Source: Chitinophaga lutea
GTDB taxonomy: Bacteria; Bacteroidota; Bacteroidia; Chitinophagales; Chitinophagaceae
NCBI RefSeq assembly: GCF_003813775.1
Contig: NZ_RPDH01000001.1
Location: 62,001-126,000 of the forward strand
DNA: 64,000 nt
Reading direction: 5' to 3'
Every line of letters begins with the position of its first letter. Within the stretch, counting starts at the first letter, position 1. Below, in pieces: positions 48,973-55,948 of this stretch. The position numbers and the translations under genes were made by a program. The notes below the pieces were generated by a model. It worked only from the letters and a program-made list of their open reading frames with translations. It was not told the origin of the DNA and ran no database searches.

Positions 48973-51471
48973 TTGAAATATTTATTACCCTTCCTCCTGC
49001 TGCCTTCCCTGGCGCACGGCCAATGGGAAAAACCTGTGGAACCGGTGCTGTCGGCCGATTACCTCGAGCTTATCCGCAAGCCCCGCGCCGCGCTTGAACC
49101 GGTCGCGGATTCGTCGATGCGTATCTTCCGCCTGGCTCGCCGCGGTTATTTCCATTCGAACGTGGGCAGCCTGAAAGTGCGCGGCAATGCGGTCAGCTTA
49201 GCGCCGGCCAACACCCTGAACGGATGGCTCACCGGCAGCCTGAATACGGCGCTGGAATTGCGGCAGGCCAACCGCGGGCCCTCCCTTCAAAATACATACG
49301 CCCAGGGCCGTGCCCTTACCTGGCGCGGCGCGGAAACGGGTGAAATGTTCAGCTTCGGCCCGGCCATGACGGCGCTGGAATTCGACGGTAGTATTTATCC
49401 CTTCGATGCGGGCGGCAAACTGGTACCGGCAGGCGCCGGCAACGGCCAGCCCGCCAAACCTTACGACAACGGTATTTTCAGAACTGCGTCCTATTTATCC
49501 CAATCCCTTTCCCTCAATGGCGGCATACGGTCTACCCGGCAGGGTCGCTGGGCATTTAACACCAAACTGGGCTACAGCCGCGAAAACACCTTCATCCGCC
49601 ACAACGAAAACAGCTCCCGGAATCTCTCTGCCTCCGTTACCAAAACCATCCCGCACTTTACGTTCACCGGCAGTTATCAGTACCTGCGCGATGAGTTATC
49701 CAACAGCAACCGCAACGGTTTCCTGAACCGCGCATATATGAACGCCCTGCTGACGCCGGCAAGCTTCGACAATAGCTACAAAAGCGGGGCCTATGGCAAC
49801 GGGGCAGACAATCCATTGAGCCTGCTCGGCAACAGCGGGAACGATTACCGGCAAACGCAGCGGAACGCGGGGCTGATGGTTAAATACGACTGGAACGATG
49901 TGGAAGTGATCGTGACGCAGGCGTATGAGAACATAGCGCAAAAAAGCGGGGAGACCTATCAGCCGGGGGCCGCATTTTTCCCCGCTGGCATAAACACCCA
50001 ACGGGATAAAACCGACCGCAGCTATTATCTGAAAGCGGAAGCCGACGCGCGGATCCCCAACTACTGGGACCACGGCAGCATGAGAGTGGAAGGGATATTC
50101 CTGTTCACGGACGACCGCTCTTCCACCGGTTACCAGCCACAACAACTGCGCTATCAATACCAGCGCAGCAATGGTCATTTGCAGCTCCGGTACAAGGTCA
50201 GTCGTCACCTGCAAAACACGCTGCTGGAAGCTACCGCAGGCAATGCGTTTTATTTCTCCAACACGGCCGTTCGTCCACAACAGTTCGCCCCGCTCGTGAA
50301 TGTGTACGCGTCGTTCCATTTCGGCGGATACAACCGTTATCAGCTGGAAGTGACCGGTTCCATGCAGGCGCTCAACAGCGAACTGCCGGTCGATAACTCC
50401 ATGGCCTACACGAACCTGCTGCAATACTCCACCGGCCATTTCATGCAATATTTTCCTTTACTGGAAACCGGTAGCTACGACCGGCTGCGGGCAGCCTACA
50501 ACCGCACCTATACCGGCAGAGCGGTATTCCGGTATAAGTATAAATTCGCGTTGAGCGCGGAATGGTTCCGGAAAGACGTGCGCGACGATGCATTCCCCAT
50601 CTATGATAACGGCCGCCTCCAACTGCAGAACATCGCCGGGCACCGGCGGCAGGGCGTTGAACTGCAGCTGAACCAGTATGCGCCTATCCAGAAAAAAACG
50701 TTGCGCACCAGCAATACGCTCTCCTTTCTGCGGTACCGCCATCGTGTAACACAGGTGGCTGACGGCTACAACGGCACACCCATTGCCGGTTTCTCCAATG
50801 TGCACAAAGCCGTGATCGCAGGTGAAACGCTGGGCGCCATCGTGGGCAACCGCTACCGGCGCGATGCGGCAAACAATGTGATCATCGGCGCAGACGGGTT
50901 TCCGCTGGTGGATGGAACACCATCCGTGATCGGCAATCCCCTCCCCGATTTTGTGATGAAGCTCAGCAACAGCCTCTTCTGGAAAGAATTCACGCTCGCC
51001 ACTGACCTGGAATGGAAAAAAGGCGGCCAGATATGGGACGGCACACAGGCGACGCTGGATTACTACGGGCGTTCGGCGGAAAGTGCGGCGCAACGCAACA
51101 CCTCCGGGCACGTTTTTAAAGGCGTGCTCGAAAACGGCCATCCCAACACCATCCCGGTCAGCTTTTACGATCCGGCCAACCCCCTGGACGAAAACCGCTG
51201 GGTGCGTTATGGGCTGAGCGGCGTGGCGGAAGACTACATCCGTGATGCGGGCAGCCTCCGTCTCAATATGGTAGAGTTGCGATATAGCTGGAATATCGGC
51301 AAAGTGCTGCGCCGCATCGACCTGGCGGCGTACGCCACGAATATCGTCCTCTGGACGGCCAGTGAAGGTACGGATCCCAACCAGCTGCTGCTCGACCATA
51401 CCAGCGGCCTCGATTTTTTCAACTTGCCATCCACACGCACCTATGGCATCAATGTTTCACTTCAATTCTGA
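48973..51471 (+). CDS. SusC-type outer-membrane barrel lacking its plug domain
   Basis: The start is a TTG that gives a good signal peptide (MKYLLPFLLLPSLAHG); no ATG fits. The 832 residues align with the barrel half of SusC-like receptors: TWRGAETGEMFSFGPAMTAL and LEFDGSIYPF are followed by barrel strands, including GFLNRAYMNALLTPASFD, and the end is TYGINVSLQF with the C-terminal Phe of outer-membrane proteins. What is missing is everything that usually comes before the barrel: no STN, no carboxypeptidase-like domain, no TonB box and no plug (no VVVGYG, no VLKDA, no IYG). The next gene begins 4 bp later and contains a SusC-type plug inside a macroglobulin. The barrel probably uses that plug in trans; this is an inference. 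Confidence 0.85.
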   Translation: MKYLLPFLLLPSLAHGQWEKPVEPVLSADYLELIRKPRAALEPVADSSMRIFRLARRGYFHSNVGSLKVRGNAVSLAPANTLNGWLTGSLNTALELRQANRGPSLQNTYAQGRALTWRGAETGEMFSFGPAMTALEFDGSIYPFDAGGKLVPAGAGNGQPAKPYDNGIFRTASYLSQSLSLNGGIRSTRQGRWAFNTKLGYSRENTFIRHNENSSRNLSASVTKTIPHFTFTGSYQYLRDELSNSNRNGFLNRAYMNALLTPASFDNSYKSGAYGNGADNPLSLLGNSGNDYRQTQRNAGLMVKYDWNDVEVIVTQAYENIAQKSGETYQPGAAFFPAGINTQRDKTDRSYYLKAEADARIPNYWDHGSMRVEGIFLFTDDRSSTGYQPQQLRYQYQRSNGHLQLRYKVSRHLQNTLLEATAGNAFYFSNTAVRPQQFAPLVNVYASFHFGGYNRYQLEVTGSMQALNSELPVDNSMAYTNLLQYSTGHFMQYFPLLETGSYDRLRAAYNRTYTGRAVFRYKYKFALSAEWFRKDVRDDAFPIYDNGRLQLQNIAGHRRQGVELQLNQYAPIQKKTLRTSNTLSFLRYRHRVTQVADGYNGTPIAGFSNVHKAVIAGETLGAIVGNRYRRDAANNVIIGADGFPLVDGTPSVIGNPLPDFVMKLSNSLFWKEFTLATDLEWKKGGQIWDGTQATLDYYGRSAESAAQRNTSGHVFKGVLENGHPNTIPVSFYDPANPLDENRWVRYGLSGVAEDYIRDAGSLRLNMVELRYSWNIGKVLRRIDLAAYATNIVLWTASEGTDPNQLLLDHTSGLDFFNLPSTRTYGINVSLQF

Positions 51472-51475
51472 TCTT

Positions 51476-54400
51476 ATGAAATACTGCGGCTTGCTGCTGC
51501 TCTGCATCGGCGCTTTTATCGGTCAAAGTTTCGGACAGGTGCTGGATTATGCGTCCAACAAGGAAAAAATATACCTGCACACGAGCCATGTATTCCTGAA
51601 ACCGGGGGATGATGTGTTCTTCAAGTTATACCTCGTCAGCGCGCGCGATAACACACCGTCCTCCGTGAGCACCATCGCTTATGTGGACGTGATCGGCCCT
51701 TCAGGCAACGTAGTGCAGCAATGCACTTATCCCGTGCAAAACGGGTATGCCGAAGGCTCTTATTCCTTTTCGCCCCAGGCGGCAGGCGGCGTGTACAAAC
51801 TGCGGGCGTACACCTCGTGGATGAAAAACGAAAAAGACAGCACCTTCTTCGTAAAAGAACTGACGCTACAGCGCGTGATCTCACCCCGGATACTGATGAA
51901 GCTCGATTTTCCGCAGAAAGGTTATGGGCCCGGCGCGGACGTCAGCGCCGATTTTTCCGCCCGCGATCTGTCAGACAAACCGATCCGGCACCATACCGTC
52001 AAATACACGATATCCATCGCAGGGCGCGAACTGCACTCAGGGAATCTGCAAACGGATGCAGCGGGCAAAACAAAAATACAGTTCCGTTTGCCGGCCGATT
52101 TATCCGTCACCGACGGCCTGCTGAACATTACCATACAATACGCTTCCTATACCGAAGCCATCTCCCGCAGCATTCCCATCACCCTCAACAAAGTGGGCCT
52201 CGGGCTGATGCCTGAAGGCGGCGCCCTGGTGGCAGGCCTGCCGGCCAACGTGGCTTTCAGGGCCCTGAACGAGTTCGGCAAACCGGTGGATATCAAAGGT
52301 GAACTGCGCGATGGTCACGGCAACGTGGTGACCACGCTGGAGAGTTTTCACGGCGGGATGGGAAAGTTTGCCTTCACCCCACAGGCAGGCAACCGGTACG
52401 AAGTGGTGCTCAACAGCCCGGCGGGTATCACACAACGGTACGAACTGCCCAAGGCAGCACCGAAAGGCCTGTCTCTCCAAATGTCGATGGCCGGCAACGA
52501 ACTGCGGATGGAAATCCACTCCACACAGAATGCCGATATCAATATCACCGGCTCCACCAAAGAGCAATTATACTTCACCAAAAAGATGCGCCTCCGGAAA
52601 GGCACACAGTCCATCACCATCGATCCGCAGCTCTTCCCCGCCGGCATCGCCCGGTTTACGGTATCGCAGGCCAACGGGCTGCCGCTGGCGGAAAGGGTGA
52701 TATTCCTCAACAGCCGCCAGATGCTGTATGTGTCGCTGACGCCGGACAAAAACACGTACACGCCCCGGGAAAAGGTAACAATGACGCTGAAAACCACAGA
52801 CGATAAAGGGAACCCCGTTCCGGCCAACCTGTCGCTGACCGTGATGGACGACAAACTCTGGACGTTTGCAGACGATAAACAGGACCATATTATTTCCTGG
52901 TTGATGATGAGCTCCGAACTGCGGGGAAAGATCGACGAGCCCCAGTTTTATTTCAAAAAAGACGAACAGAAAGCCACTGCGGCGTTAGACCTTGTGATGC
53001 TCACGCACGGCTACCGTTATTTCGATTACCTCCCGCAGATCGAGCGGGAAAACAAACTGAAATTTTTCCCTGATGTGCAGAACGTACTGACGGGAAGTGT
53101 GGTGAATGACAAAGACCAGCCCGTCAGCGCCACGGTATGGCTGGTGGAATCGCGGACCAGCAAGGTGATGCAGCTGGTCACCGGGCCCGACGGCACCTTT
53201 TATTACCCCAACCTGTTACCCGGCCAATATTATTACATCGTGGCCCAGTCATTGAAAAAGAAAGAAAGGATCAAAATCACCATCAGCGGCAACGGCATCG
53301 GTGGCGACCAGGGTAACCGCGACCGGTACACAGTGATGCGCTTCGGTCAGGCGGATTTTTTTGCCGCGCAGCCCGTAAAAGAAGAAGTGGTGGCGCCCTT
53401 TGCGGCAAACGATGTGAAAGCACTGCAGGATGTAGTGGTGGTCGGTTTCGGCACACAGAAAAAAACAGCCCTGACCGGTTCGGTAACCACCATCGCACCA
53501 CAGGAATACAATTTCTCTTCTGTCAGGAATATGCTGGCTGGCCGTGTGCCGGGCATTGCTGTAGCGCAGACGGCCAATCCCGCGCAGGGAGGCCAGTTGA
53601 ACATACGTGGCACCAATACCCTGGTCAATAACGAGGGGCCGCTTTTTGTGGTGGACGGCATCCCCATGAAAAAACTCGACCTCGGGAACCTCAACCCGAA
53701 CGACATCCAATCACTCCACATTCTGAAAGATGCCGCAGCCACCTCCATTTATGGCAGTATGGCGAACCGTGGCGTCATTATCATTGAAACCAAAAAGAAC
53801 AGCCAGGCGAGGATAAAATGGAAACACACGCCCACCCTCTATTACGGCTTTCACCCGCTGCAGATGAACCAACCCACATTCACGCCCGTTCGCCGCTTCC
53901 AGGCGATCCAGTACGAAACGGCCTATTACGTGGCGGAACGGACGGATTTCAGGGAAACCATCTACTGGAACCCCACCGTGCAAACCGGTAAAAACGGGGA
54001 AGCGAGCGTATCGTTCTACAATTCGGACGCCACCACCACCTTCCGCGCCATCGCGGAAGGCATCGGGTTCAACGGGAAAGTGGGCCGGGAAGAAAGCACC
54101 TATGCCGTGCAGAACATGCTGGGCGTAGACGCAAAGATCCCTCCTTATCTCACGGTAGGCGACAACGCGCTCATCCCGCTCCATATCAAAAACAATTACA
54201 CGCAAGCCCTGGAAGCGGTCATCAAGGTATCGTTCGTGGAAAGCGTCAAAGCAGGTATTTTCAACAGCACCATCCAGCTGCCCGCCGGTGGTTCCCGCGT
54301 GGTATACGTGCCCGTGACCGCCACCTCGCCGGTAGATGGCAACCTGCGCTTTACCGTTACCACCAAGGTACATGCGGAAACCGTGTCGCTGCCGGTCAGC

Positions 54401-55948
54401 GTGGTGCAGAAAGGATTTCCGGTGCTCCATACCTTCGCCGGCATCCGCTCGGCGCGACATACTTTCCCCGTGCAGAAGATGATCCCCGGCACCTTCCAGT
54501 ACGAACTGAAGCTGTTCAAAAACCCCGAAGGCCAGCTGCTCGACGGTATTGCGGGCATGCTGCGCGAACCGTACGGATGTTTCGAACAAACCTCCTCCGC
54601 CACCTACCCCAACATCTTTATCCTCAAATACCTGCGCGAAGCGGGCCGCTCAGACCCGAAGACCGAGCAGCGCGCCCTTGAACTGATCGCCAAAGGTTAC
54701 CAGCGGTTGACCGGTTTTGAAACGGCGGAAGGCGGTTTCGAATGGTTCGGAAAAACGCCGCCGCATGAGGCGCTGACGGCATACGGCCTGATGGAGTTCA
54801 CGGATATGAACCAGTTTATTGCGGTAGACCAGCAAATGCTCAAACGCACCAGGAACTTCTTACTGGGCCGGCGGAACGGCAAAGGCGGCTTCCATCTTTC
54901 CACCACGGGATACGACCGCTTCGCCAGCGTCCCCAACAAGATCGCCGACCTCTACATCGTGTACGCGTTCAGCCATGCCGGTTTCGGCGCGGAAGTGATG
55001 CGTGAATACGAAGCCGTGCTGGCACAGGTTCTACAAAGCGGCGACGCCTACCGCCTCTCGATGATGGCGCTCACCGCGGCCAACATGAAACGGCAGCAGG
55101 ACTTCGACCAGCTCATGGCATTGCTGCGCAAACACTACCGGCAAAAAACCTTCAAATCCGAAACCAGCGTAGTGAACTCCCGCGCCGCTTCACTCCAGGT
55201 GGAAACAAAATCCCTCTACCTGATGGCGCTGGCACGGGAAAAATCGCCCGACCTGGTGCTGATGGCGGAACTGCTGTCGGACATCATGGCCGGAAAATCT
55301 TACTTCGGTTATTCCTCCACGCAGGCCACCGTACTCGCGCTGAACGCTGTGGTCGACTATGCCCGCGCCGTGGGGAAAGCTGCTGCAGACACCGATATCC
55401 GCTTTTCACTGAACAACCGTACCGTGGAACCGGGCAAACCGGCAACCACAGAGGCGCCGGCGGCGGAAAACGTATTCAGCGCCGACTACGTCCGCCCGGG
55501 CAACCTGCCCTACAACATGGAAGTGTCGTATTACACCTTCACCCCGCCCAACAGTTCCGCTGCCGAGCTGCAACTGCACACGGCCCTGGCGGCACGGCAG
55601 GTGAAAACCGGCGAAACCCTGCGGCTGCAGGTAGCGGTAAAAAATGAAAAGCCGGTATTGCAGGCCATGTCCATCGCCAAAATCGGTATTCCGGCCGGCC
55701 TTTCCACGCAGCCATGGCAGCTGAAAGAACTGATGGACAAAAACCAGGTGGCGTATTATGAGATCTTCGACAACTACCTGGTATTGTATTGGATGGGGTT
55801 TGCGCCCAACGAAACCAAAACCCTGCATCTCGACCTGAAAGCGGAGATACCCGGCACCTATAAAGCCAAAGCCAGCAATGCCGGCCTGTACTACAATCCG
55901 GAGCACAAACACTGGAACGACGGGCTCGAGGCTACCGTAATGCCATAA
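51476..55948 (+). CDS. Alpha-2-macroglobulin with thioester motif and an inserted SusC-type plug domain
   Basis: The start (MKYCGLLLLCIGAF) is 4 bp past the barrel gene; the frame continues upstream only by overlap. The 1490 residues have a signal peptide, an MG2 domain (about 30-115, YLHTSHVFLKPGDDVFFKLY), further MG-like domains, a carboxypeptidase-like domain (about 565-640), a SusC plug (about 650-775: VVVVGFGTQKKTALTGSV, LNIRGTNTLVNNEGPLFVVD, SLHILKDAAATSIYGSMANR), the A2M domain (RTDFRETIYWNPTVQTGKNG), and a thioester domain with PYGCFEQ, Cys1035 and Gln1038. Bacterial macroglobulins trap proteases by this thioester. The plug in the middle is what the upstream barrel lacks, and DVVVVG could serve as a TonB-box-like start. 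No lipobox is seen. Confidence 0.88.
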   Translation: MKYCGLLLLCIGAFIGQSFGQVLDYASNKEKIYLHTSHVFLKPGDDVFFKLYLVSARDNTPSSVSTIAYVDVIGPSGNVVQQCTYPVQNGYAEGSYSFSPQAAGGVYKLRAYTSWMKNEKDSTFFVKELTLQRVISPRILMKLDFPQKGYGPGADVSADFSARDLSDKPIRHHTVKYTISIAGRELHSGNLQTDAAGKTKIQFRLPADLSVTDGLLNITIQYASYTEAISRSIPITLNKVGLGLMPEGGALVAGLPANVAFRALNEFGKPVDIKGELRDGHGNVVTTLESFHGGMGKFAFTPQAGNRYEVVLNSPAGITQRYELPKAAPKGLSLQMSMAGNELRMEIHSTQNADINITGSTKEQLYFTKKMRLRKGTQSITIDPQLFPAGIARFTVSQANGLPLAERVIFLNSRQMLYVSLTPDKNTYTPREKVTMTLKTTDDKGNPVPANLSLTVMDDKLWTFADDKQDHIISWLMMSSELRGKIDEPQFYFKKDEQKATAALDLVMLTHGYRYFDYLPQIERENKLKFFPDVQNVLTGSVVNDKDQPVSATVWLVESRTSKVMQLVTGPDGTFYYPNLLPGQYYYIVAQSLKKKERIKITISGNGIGGDQGNRDRYTVMRFGQADFFAAQPVKEEVVAPFAANDVKALQDVVVVGFGTQKKTALTGSVTTIAPQEYNFSSVRNMLAGRVPGIAVAQTANPAQGGQLNIRGTNTLVNNEGPLFVVDGIPMKKLDLGNLNPNDIQSLHILKDAAATSIYGSMANRGVIIIETKKNSQARIKWKHTPTLYYGFHPLQMNQPTFTPVRRFQAIQYETAYYVAERTDFRETIYWNPTVQTGKNGEASVSFYNSDATTTFRAIAEGIGFNGKVGREESTYAVQNMLGVDAKIPPYLTVGDNALIPLHIKNNYTQALEAVIKVSFVESVKAGIFNSTIQLPAGGSRVVYVPVTATSPVDGNLRFTVTTKVHAETVSLPVSVVQKGFPVLHTFAGIRSARHTFPVQKMIPGTFQYELKLFKNPEGQLLDGIAGMLREPYGCFEQTSSATYPNIFILKYLREAGRSDPKTEQRALELIAKGYQRLTGFETAEGGFEWFGKTPPHEALTAYGLMEFTDMNQFIAVDQQMLKRTRNFLLGRRNGKGGFHLSTTGYDRFASVPNKIADLYIVYAFSHAGFGAEVMREYEAVLAQVLQSGDAYRLSMMALTAANMKRQQDFDQLMALLRKHYRQKTFKSETSVVNSRAASLQVETKSLYLMALAREKSPDLVLMAELLSDIMAGKSYFGYSSTQATVLALNAVVDYARAVGKAAADTDIRFSLNNRTVEPGKPATTEAPAAENVFSADYVRPGNLPYNMEVSYYTFTPPNSSAAELQLHTALAARQVKTGETLRLQVAVKNEKPVLQAMSIAKIGIPAGLSTQPWQLKELMDKNQVAYYEIFDNYLVLYWMGFAPNETKTLHLDLKAEIPGTYKAKASNAGLYYNPEHKHWNDGLEATVMP

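What the first reader, a model, noticed from the sequence alone, without database searches (positions are those of the whole stretch)
51476..55948. Alpha-2-macroglobulin carrying a SusC-type TonB plug in its middle
Seen: one open frame contains MG2, a carboxypeptidase-like domain, a complete SusC-type plug (about residues 650-775), the A2M domain and a thioester domain with Cys1035 and Gln1038 (PYGCFEQ). Known: bacterial macroglobulins trap proteases in the periplasm, and plugs close outer-membrane barrels. Inference: the plug tethers the trap to a barrel, or the trap gates a pore. Fusion of these two modules could link protease sensing to outer-membrane transport. I know of no description of such a mechanism, though related proteins may be annotated as plug-domain proteins.
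Basis: partly seen in the sequence, partly recalled or inferred. Interest (0 to 1): 0.9.

Follow-up and report, generated by a model that had tools for sequence, protein, structure and literature searches.

The report
Protease trap plugging a separate barrel
A bacterial macroglobulin, a protein of the kind that traps proteases, carries the stopper of an outer-membrane channel, and the gene next to it encodes the matching channel without a stopper, so the two probably form a two-part gate docking the trap under the outer membrane.

Summary
Confirmed and extended. The 1490-residue protein is a thioester alpha-2-macroglobulin with a SusC-type plug and TonB box inside it. Its model has 22 long strands and matches BT1763 from residue 210 on. 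The two genes hold complementary parts of one SusC. Of 42 macroglobulin loci compared, 19 have a plug and 18 of these the plug-less barrel directly upstream; 0 of 23 without detected plug have it (3 of them cut off at the contig end). In 79 genomes of the genus, 43 match both genes, 34 neither; the other two hold remnants. On an rpoB tree the pair changes at least 5-6 times, though one deletion can remove both genes. The thioester motif is kept in 120 of 120 listed relatives. Best reading: a split TonB-dependent outer-membrane complex whose plug comes in trans from a macroglobulin, docking the trap under the barrel. Docking is inferred; TonB gating and protease triggering are untested, and the plug's predicted fold had low confidence. 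The literature listings seen showed no description.

The parts
48973..51471 (+). Plug-less SusC-type outer-membrane barrel, 832 aa, TTG start, signal peptide (by eye), C-terminal Phe; no Pfam match; TIGR04056 match only at profile 673-981
51476..55948 (+). Alpha-2-macroglobulin with internal SusC-type plug, 1490 aa, 4 bases behind the barrel's stop codon
51476..51535 (+). Signal peptide (residues 1-20, ..QSFG|Q), no lipobox; reading of the sequence, no predictor run
51572..51847 (+). MG2 domain, residues 33-124
53087..53284 (+). Carboxypeptidase-regulatory-like (SusC NTE-like) domain, residues 538-603
   Evidence: below Pfam cut-off
53285..53422 (+). Linker, residues 604-649; conserved at 605-612, poorly conserved at 613-649
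53423..53440 (+). TonB box, residues 650-655 LQDVVV; Leu650 and Val653 in 52 of 52 rows
   Evidence: aligned with the TonB box of BT1763
53408..53809 (+). SusC-type plug, residues 645-778 (Pfam Plug 666-767)
53957..54226 (+). A2M domain (MG7), residues 828-917
54542..55360 (+). Thioester domain, residues 1023-1295; CxEQ with Cys1035 and Gln1038
55598..55903 (+). MG10/receptor-binding-like C-terminal domain, residues 1375-1476 (weak match, below cut-off)

Best explanation
The two genes encode the two halves of one TonB-dependent outer-membrane complex. The barrel is inserted in the outer membrane without a plug. The macroglobulin is exported to the periplasm and puts its internal plug into the barrel from below; as in an ordinary SusC (established knowledge, not tested here), both ends of the plug point to the periplasm, so the macroglobulin domains on either side hang under the barrel. 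This docks a thioester protease trap at the inner face of the outer membrane. The plug keeps a TonB box, so TonB can probably pull it and open the barrel, as in SusC. Shown by computation: the split of the SusC sequence at the plug/barrel junction, the adjacent gene pair, the near-perfect co-occurrence, the kept TonB box and thioester motif. Inferred: physical docking, TonB-driven movement, and use as a guard that catches proteases coming through or arriving at this pore. The plug lies between the MG5/6 part and MG7, the place of the bait region in other macroglobulins, so a protease cutting the linkers beside the plug could fire the trap and cut it loose; this last step is conjecture.
For: The barrel matches SusC only after the plug: the first barrel-side position on my SusC HMM is 248-265 in 96 of the 97 plug-less relatives, while the window's macroglobulin holds positions 97-248. 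Of the 105 proteins, 97 show no plug by HMM; the other 8 are SusC-type proteins with plug. Model: 22 long strands, best matched by SusC structures, beginning where their barrels begin. Gene pair: 18 of 18 loci of the plugged clade, barrel directly upstream on the same strand; gap 3-5 bases in 8 and 4 in the window from its own start, 7 overlap because the script took the longest frame, 28 in L038 and 165 in L025. 23 contig lengths recur in both protein lists (counted by eye, the window's contig included). Genus census: 43 both, 34 neither, 2 remnants of 79. rpoB tree of 29 genomes: 6 changes of the pair, 5 forced by supported branches, both genes having the same state in all 28 counted. Plug-less barrels lie on one side of one branch (SH-aLRT 100), macroglobulins with plug and barrel likewise (96). 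TonB box: Leu650 and Val653 in 52 of 52 rows, Val654 90%, Val655 92%, behind residues 613-649 where the commonest residue reaches only 12-38% in every column but Pro633 (77%). N-termini (heuristic): spacer of 10-16 residues behind the hydrophobic core in the 12 of 17 plugged proteins that the script placed (L025 not given to it), 23-36 in 16 of 20 plug-less ones, which fits an exchange of N-terminal anchor for plug. Precedent: separately synthesised FhuA cork and barrel and their incorporation in the E. coli outer membrane were studied (Braun et al. 2003, as told in a passage of PMC2615193); the BT1763 plug can leave its barrel in vitro (passages of PMC7782687).
Against: No complex could be modelled with the tools, and the plug itself folded with low confidence in the macroglobulin model. 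Adjacent genes can be lost in one deletion, so co-loss is weaker proof of partnership than it looks. The trait appears once on the macroglobulin tree, so the 18 loci are not 18 independent cases. L060 has a plug (77 residues, above the Pfam cut-off) but no plug-less barrel in the 17 kb read, and its genome G616 gave no barrel match at 1e-30. L057 and L058, which my plug HMM missed, match only about 64% of the Pfam plug. L030 and L038 lack the typical signal-peptide end. The plug tree does not show whether the macroglobulin plugs derive from the SusC that lost its plug; the A2M label needs 3 changes there. Plugs were looked for only in fetched loci and listed proteins, not in every genome of the census.
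Confidence: 0.72

Rival explanations
1. Anchor only: the plug is a passive tether that holds the trap at the outer membrane; it is never moved by TonB and the barrel is never open.
For: N-terminal spacer difference suggests an exchange of anchors; L057 and L058 have only partial plugs yet keep the barrel beside them; no SusD-type match among 12 neighbouring proteins scanned at 10 loci (9, 1, 2).
Against: The TonB box is kept (Leu650 and Val653 in 52 of 52) behind a drifting stretch; a mere anchor need not keep it.
Confidence: 0.35
2. Protease-sensing gate: the plug takes the place of the bait region; cutting its linkers fires the thioester trap and unblocks or permanently blocks the pore.
For: The slot lies between the part matching A2M_BRD in plug-less relatives and the A2M (MG7) domain; residues 613-649 are variable; CxEQ is kept in 120 of 120.
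Against: No bait sequence or cleavage was tested; in plug-less relatives the same slot holds low-complexity sequence that could be the real bait, and its counterpart in plugged ones may lie elsewhere. Residues 781-827 are not especially variable (mean top-residue frequency 0.58).
Confidence: 0.15
3. The plug is a reused periplasmic domain with no link to this barrel, as perhaps in the short MG2 proteins with a decayed plug.
For: L060 carries a plug and the roughly 825-aa MG2 proteins a plug-like piece (my reading; Pfam finds no plug there) without a plug-less barrel beside them.
Against: All 18 loci of the plugged clade keep the plug-less barrel directly upstream; in the genus the pair is present or absent together in 77 of 79 genomes, the other two being remnants; the barrel lacks just the part that the neighbour supplies.
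Confidence: 0.06
4. Ordinary SusC transporter broken by a frameshift, mutation or misassembly.
For: Barrel and plug parts come from one protein family.
Against: The plug lies 640 residues inside the downstream gene, not at its start; the same split is found in many species and several families.
Confidence: 0.01

Closest known systems
SusC/RagA TonB-dependent transporters (BT1763, BT2264, RagA)
   Same: 22-strand barrel, plug with TonB box, NTE-like domain before the plug; barrel model matches their structures
   Different: Here plug and barrel are separate proteins, the plug is part of a macroglobulin, and no SusD-type match was found among the 12 neighbours scanned
Bacterial thioester alpha-2-macroglobulin (E. 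coli ECAM/YfhM, Salmonella Sa-A2M)
   Same: MG domains, MG7, thioester domain with CxEQ, weak MG10-like end; periplasmic location likely
   Different: ECAM is anchored in the inner membrane and goes with PBP1C (PMC4498604, passages); this one has a plug in the bait-region slot and goes with a barrel. The same genome holds a separate ECAM-like A2M beside a PBP1C-type gene
Type II A2M MagD of P. aeruginosa
   Same: A macroglobulin kept in place by a partner from its own operon, MagB (PMC5764988, passages)
   Different: MagB has a transmembrane helix and holds MagD at the inner membrane; MagD has no thioester; the paper's text does not hold the word plug
FhuA made as separate cork and barrel
   Same: Plug and barrel as two chains (PMC2615193, passage; the original paper is not held)
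   Different: A laboratory construct; here the split is natural and the plug belongs to a large second protein

Membership tests
SusC/RagA TonB-dependent transporter | Plug and barrel in one chain | tested here: not met
   Barrel gene has no plug, macroglobulin has no barrel
SusC/RagA TonB-dependent transporter | 22-strand barrel of SusC type | tested here: met
   Predicted model:
SusC/RagA TonB-dependent transporter | TonB box before the plug | tested here: met
   In the macroglobulin, residues 650-655
SusC/RagA TonB-dependent transporter | SusD-type lid encoded beside it | tested here: inconclusive
   No SusD-type Pfam match among 12 neighbouring proteins at 10 loci (9, 1, 2); one of them had no match at all; other neighbours were not scanned
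SusC/RagA TonB-dependent transporter | TonB-driven import of a substrate | not testable with these tools
   -
Thioester alpha-2-macroglobulin | MG2, MG7 (A2M) and TED domains in order | tested here: met
   all three above Pfam cut-offs
Thioester alpha-2-macroglobulin | CxEQ thioester motif | tested here: met
   Cys1035, Gln1038; 120 of 120 listed relatives, the query included
Thioester alpha-2-macroglobulin | Bait region before MG7 | tested here: inconclusive
   The slot is filled by NTE-like domain, linker and plug; no bait identified
Thioester alpha-2-macroglobulin | Traps proteases | not testable with these tools
   -

The most novel reading that the evidence does not exclude
A natural two-component TonB-dependent channel in which the plug is a movable subunit that is at the same time a thioester protease trap: TonB pulling and protease cutting both act on the same plug, so that energised pore opening and covalent capture of incoming proteases are coupled at the outer membrane.
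Probability: 0.3. Interest if true: 0.95.

Novelty: new variant of a known kind. Interest (0 to 1): 0.82.

Why it matters
TonB-dependent transporters are described as single chains with a built-in plug, and how the plug moves during transport is not settled (recalled, and the tone of PMC11658791 passages). A natural system with the plug on another protein would make plug movement directly testable and would give Bacteroidota a way to dock large periplasmic machines under a pore. It would also link a complement-like protease trap with an outer-membrane channel, which none of the literature listings seen here describes. Most plug-less barrels listed carry no Pfam match and are named hypothetical protein, some TonB-dependent receptor, and many of the macroglobulins are named plug-domain or SusC/RagA proteins, which may be why the pair was overlooked.

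Tried and rejected
Frameshift or misassembly: rejected. Search of genome contigs with the single protein found nothing; whole-genome searches replaced it. AlphaFold2 for macroglobulin residues 21-1020: MG domains confident, plug not; the 50 Foldseek rows shown for it are macroglobulins and complement proteins and say nothing on the plug. Plug tree: poorly resolved, with a long A2M row (L038); does not show that plug and barrel came from the same SusC. LepB as species marker: dropped, up to three copies in many genomes; rpoB used instead (29 of 30 genomes had it, G006 missing; G668 left out of the change count because it holds a barrel fragment). The independent-pairs test on the macroglobulin tree is uninformative (one origin). 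On the rpoB tree I gave the same presence vector for both genes, because searches show the same state in all 28; the 5 agreeing pairs and p 0.0625 therefore restate that and are no separate test. Literature: the searches gave 0, 183, 0, 36, 34, 23, 37185, 70, 1 and 57 papers; I saw only the listed titles and abstract starts (at most 10-25 each) and passages of eight papers. None of these describes a macroglobulin with a TonB plug or a natural split of plug and barrel; subscription journals and preprints are mostly not held. Rows dropped: of the 31 macroglobulin matches, the fragment in G572 was not fetched; L039, L052 and L059 are cut off by contig ends, so that their upstream side (and, in L059, most of the central slot) could not be tested; L053 and L056 have only about 2.6 kb upstream. 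L025 (G011) has a stop near the start of the macroglobulin frame; described only. G666 holds a macroglobulin remnant with 8 stops; described only.
Full report
What is there. The frame 51476-55948 encodes 1490 residues with MG2, a carboxypeptidase-regulatory-like domain (just below its cut-off), a SusC-type plug, the A2M (MG7) domain and a thioester domain with Cys1035 and Gln1038. The plug part gives E 2e-27 to BT1763 and 34-48% identity to SusC-length frames in the listed rows.

Is the pair real? I compared 42 macroglobulin loci: the window and 8 others of the genus, 4 from a sample of 395 genomes of the phylum, and 29 from a sample of 248 of the order; one further match, a fragment in G572, was not fetched. 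Of 19 with a plug, 18 have the plug-less barrel directly upstream on the same strand; the exception is L060, with a partial plug and an N-terminal membrane segment. Of 23 without detected plug none has it; for three of these (L039, L052, L059) the contig ends at the gene, leaving 20 that could be tested, two of them with only about 2.6 kb upstream. Pfam on these 23 together with L060 finds Plug in one member only, L060 (L059 was not in that alignment). Two of the 18 (L057, L058) were missed by my plug HMM but have Pfam Plug above its cut-off. In the phylum sample 5 of 395 genomes have such a macroglobulin and 4 a barrel at E below 1e-60, the same 4, side by side; the fifth macroglobulin (G162, L031) has no plug. 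The three further barrel matches lie in full SusCs (L032-L034). In the order sample 30 of 248 genomes have a macroglobulin match and 21 a barrel match at 1e-30; 7 have the pair, and the other 14 barrel matches lie in frames of 1050-1181 residues, the length of a full SusC (8 of them fetched: L033, L062, L074, L076-L080).

Census in the genus. Among 79 genomes each search found 44. 43 have both. G666 has only a macroglobulin remnant with 8 stops; G668 has only a barrel fragment (query 1-321); G674 and G689, counted among the 43, are fragmentary in incomplete genomes. 34 have neither. The plug was checked only in the fetched loci, not in all 43. Fisher's test gives p 5e-20 but ignores relatedness. 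On an rpoB tree of 29 of these genomes the pair changes at least 6 times, 5 forced by supported branches, with both genes in the same state in all 28 counted. Since the genes are adjacent, one deletion can remove both, so this shows linkage and joint fate, not by itself binding.

History. Plug-less barrels lie on one side of one branch (SH-aLRT 100), nested among SusC barrels if the midpoint root is right. Macroglobulins with plug and barrel do so too (96). Thus the split probably arose once and was kept through several families. The plug tree is too short to say where the macroglobulin plugs came from.

How it probably works. In a SusC both ends of the plug face the periplasm (established knowledge), so a plug inserted from below leaves the macroglobulin domains in the periplasm. 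Plugged macroglobulins mostly start with an ordinary cleavable-looking signal peptide and a spacer of 10-16 residues before the first MG domain (12 of 17 placed by the script); plug-less ones have 23-36 (16 of 20 placed) and L060 has 99; many of these look membrane-anchored at the N-terminus (a heuristic, no predictor was run; L030 and L038 lack the typical cleavage site; L025 was not given to the script). This suggests that the plug replaced the anchor. The TonB box of BT1763 is 81-VDEVVV-86, and its loss hampers growth on levan about as much as loss of SusD (PMC7782687, passages). In the macroglobulins Leu650 and Val653 stand in 52 of 52 rows and Val654 and Val655 in 90 and 92%, behind residues 613-649, where the commonest residue reaches only 12-38% in every column but Pro633. 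I take this as a sign that TonB acts on the plug. The thioester motif is kept in 120 of 120, so trapping is probably still selected. The plug stands between the A2M_BRD/MG6 part and MG7, where other macroglobulins have the bait region (BRD inserted in MG6 per a passage of PMC12939704); hence the idea of a protease-sensing plug, which remains conjecture.

Known things. E. coli alpha-2-macroglobulin is anchored in the inner membrane and paired with PBP1C (PMC4498604, passages). This genome has such a pair elsewhere (L084), so the plugged protein is an additional system. Separately synthesised FhuA cork and barrel have been studied in E. coli (PMC2615193, passage). No natural split of this kind, and no macroglobulin with a plug, turned up in the listings of ten literature searches, which cover open-licence papers only and of which I saw the top rows.

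Verdict. A conserved gene pair, apparently unremarked, that most likely forms a split TonB-dependent outer-membrane complex with a protease trap as its plug subunit. Docking is likely (0.72), TonB gating plausible, protease-triggered gating open.

Noticed in passing
L039:2611-5751 (G513), residues 230-307: A plug-less relative carries a TonB C-terminal domain (PF03544, E 2e-16) in the same slot before MG7, another link between these macroglobulins and the Ton system.
   Followed up: partly
P0215 (metagenome, 1175 aa): SusC-type plug and barrel behind an N-terminal part that looks to me like a VIT/VWA protein; nearest to the plug-less barrels on the barrel tree. Pfam names only the Plug.
   Followed up: partly
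L028:2891-5206 (G239): A protein with Plug, VWA and T9SS sorting domain directly upstream of the barrel/macroglobulin pair.
   Followed up: no
L030:3623-4093 (G255): A 156-residue protein with two half plugs just upstream of the pair.
   Followed up: no
L015:8692-11166, L011:7325-9895 and similar: Short MG2 proteins (about 790-860 aa) with an N-terminal membrane segment and a C-terminal MG7-like end; between them lies what I read as a decayed plug (Pfam finds none). No plug-less barrel beside the five read; similar frames in most same-genus genomes.
   Followed up: partly
L049 (G586), central slot: What I read as a remnant of a SusC plug (TonB-box-like VVVAG and ALQGRVAGVQIQ) in a macroglobulin without a Pfam plug.
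   Followed up: no
L084:4652-12706 (same genome as the window): A separate canonical bacterial macroglobulin (1858 aa) next to a PBP1C-type gene.
   Followed up: partly
window 48973 and L018, L020, L021, L037: The barrel frame starts with a TTG at the signal peptide in several species, possibly tuning the ratio of the two proteins.
   Followed up: no
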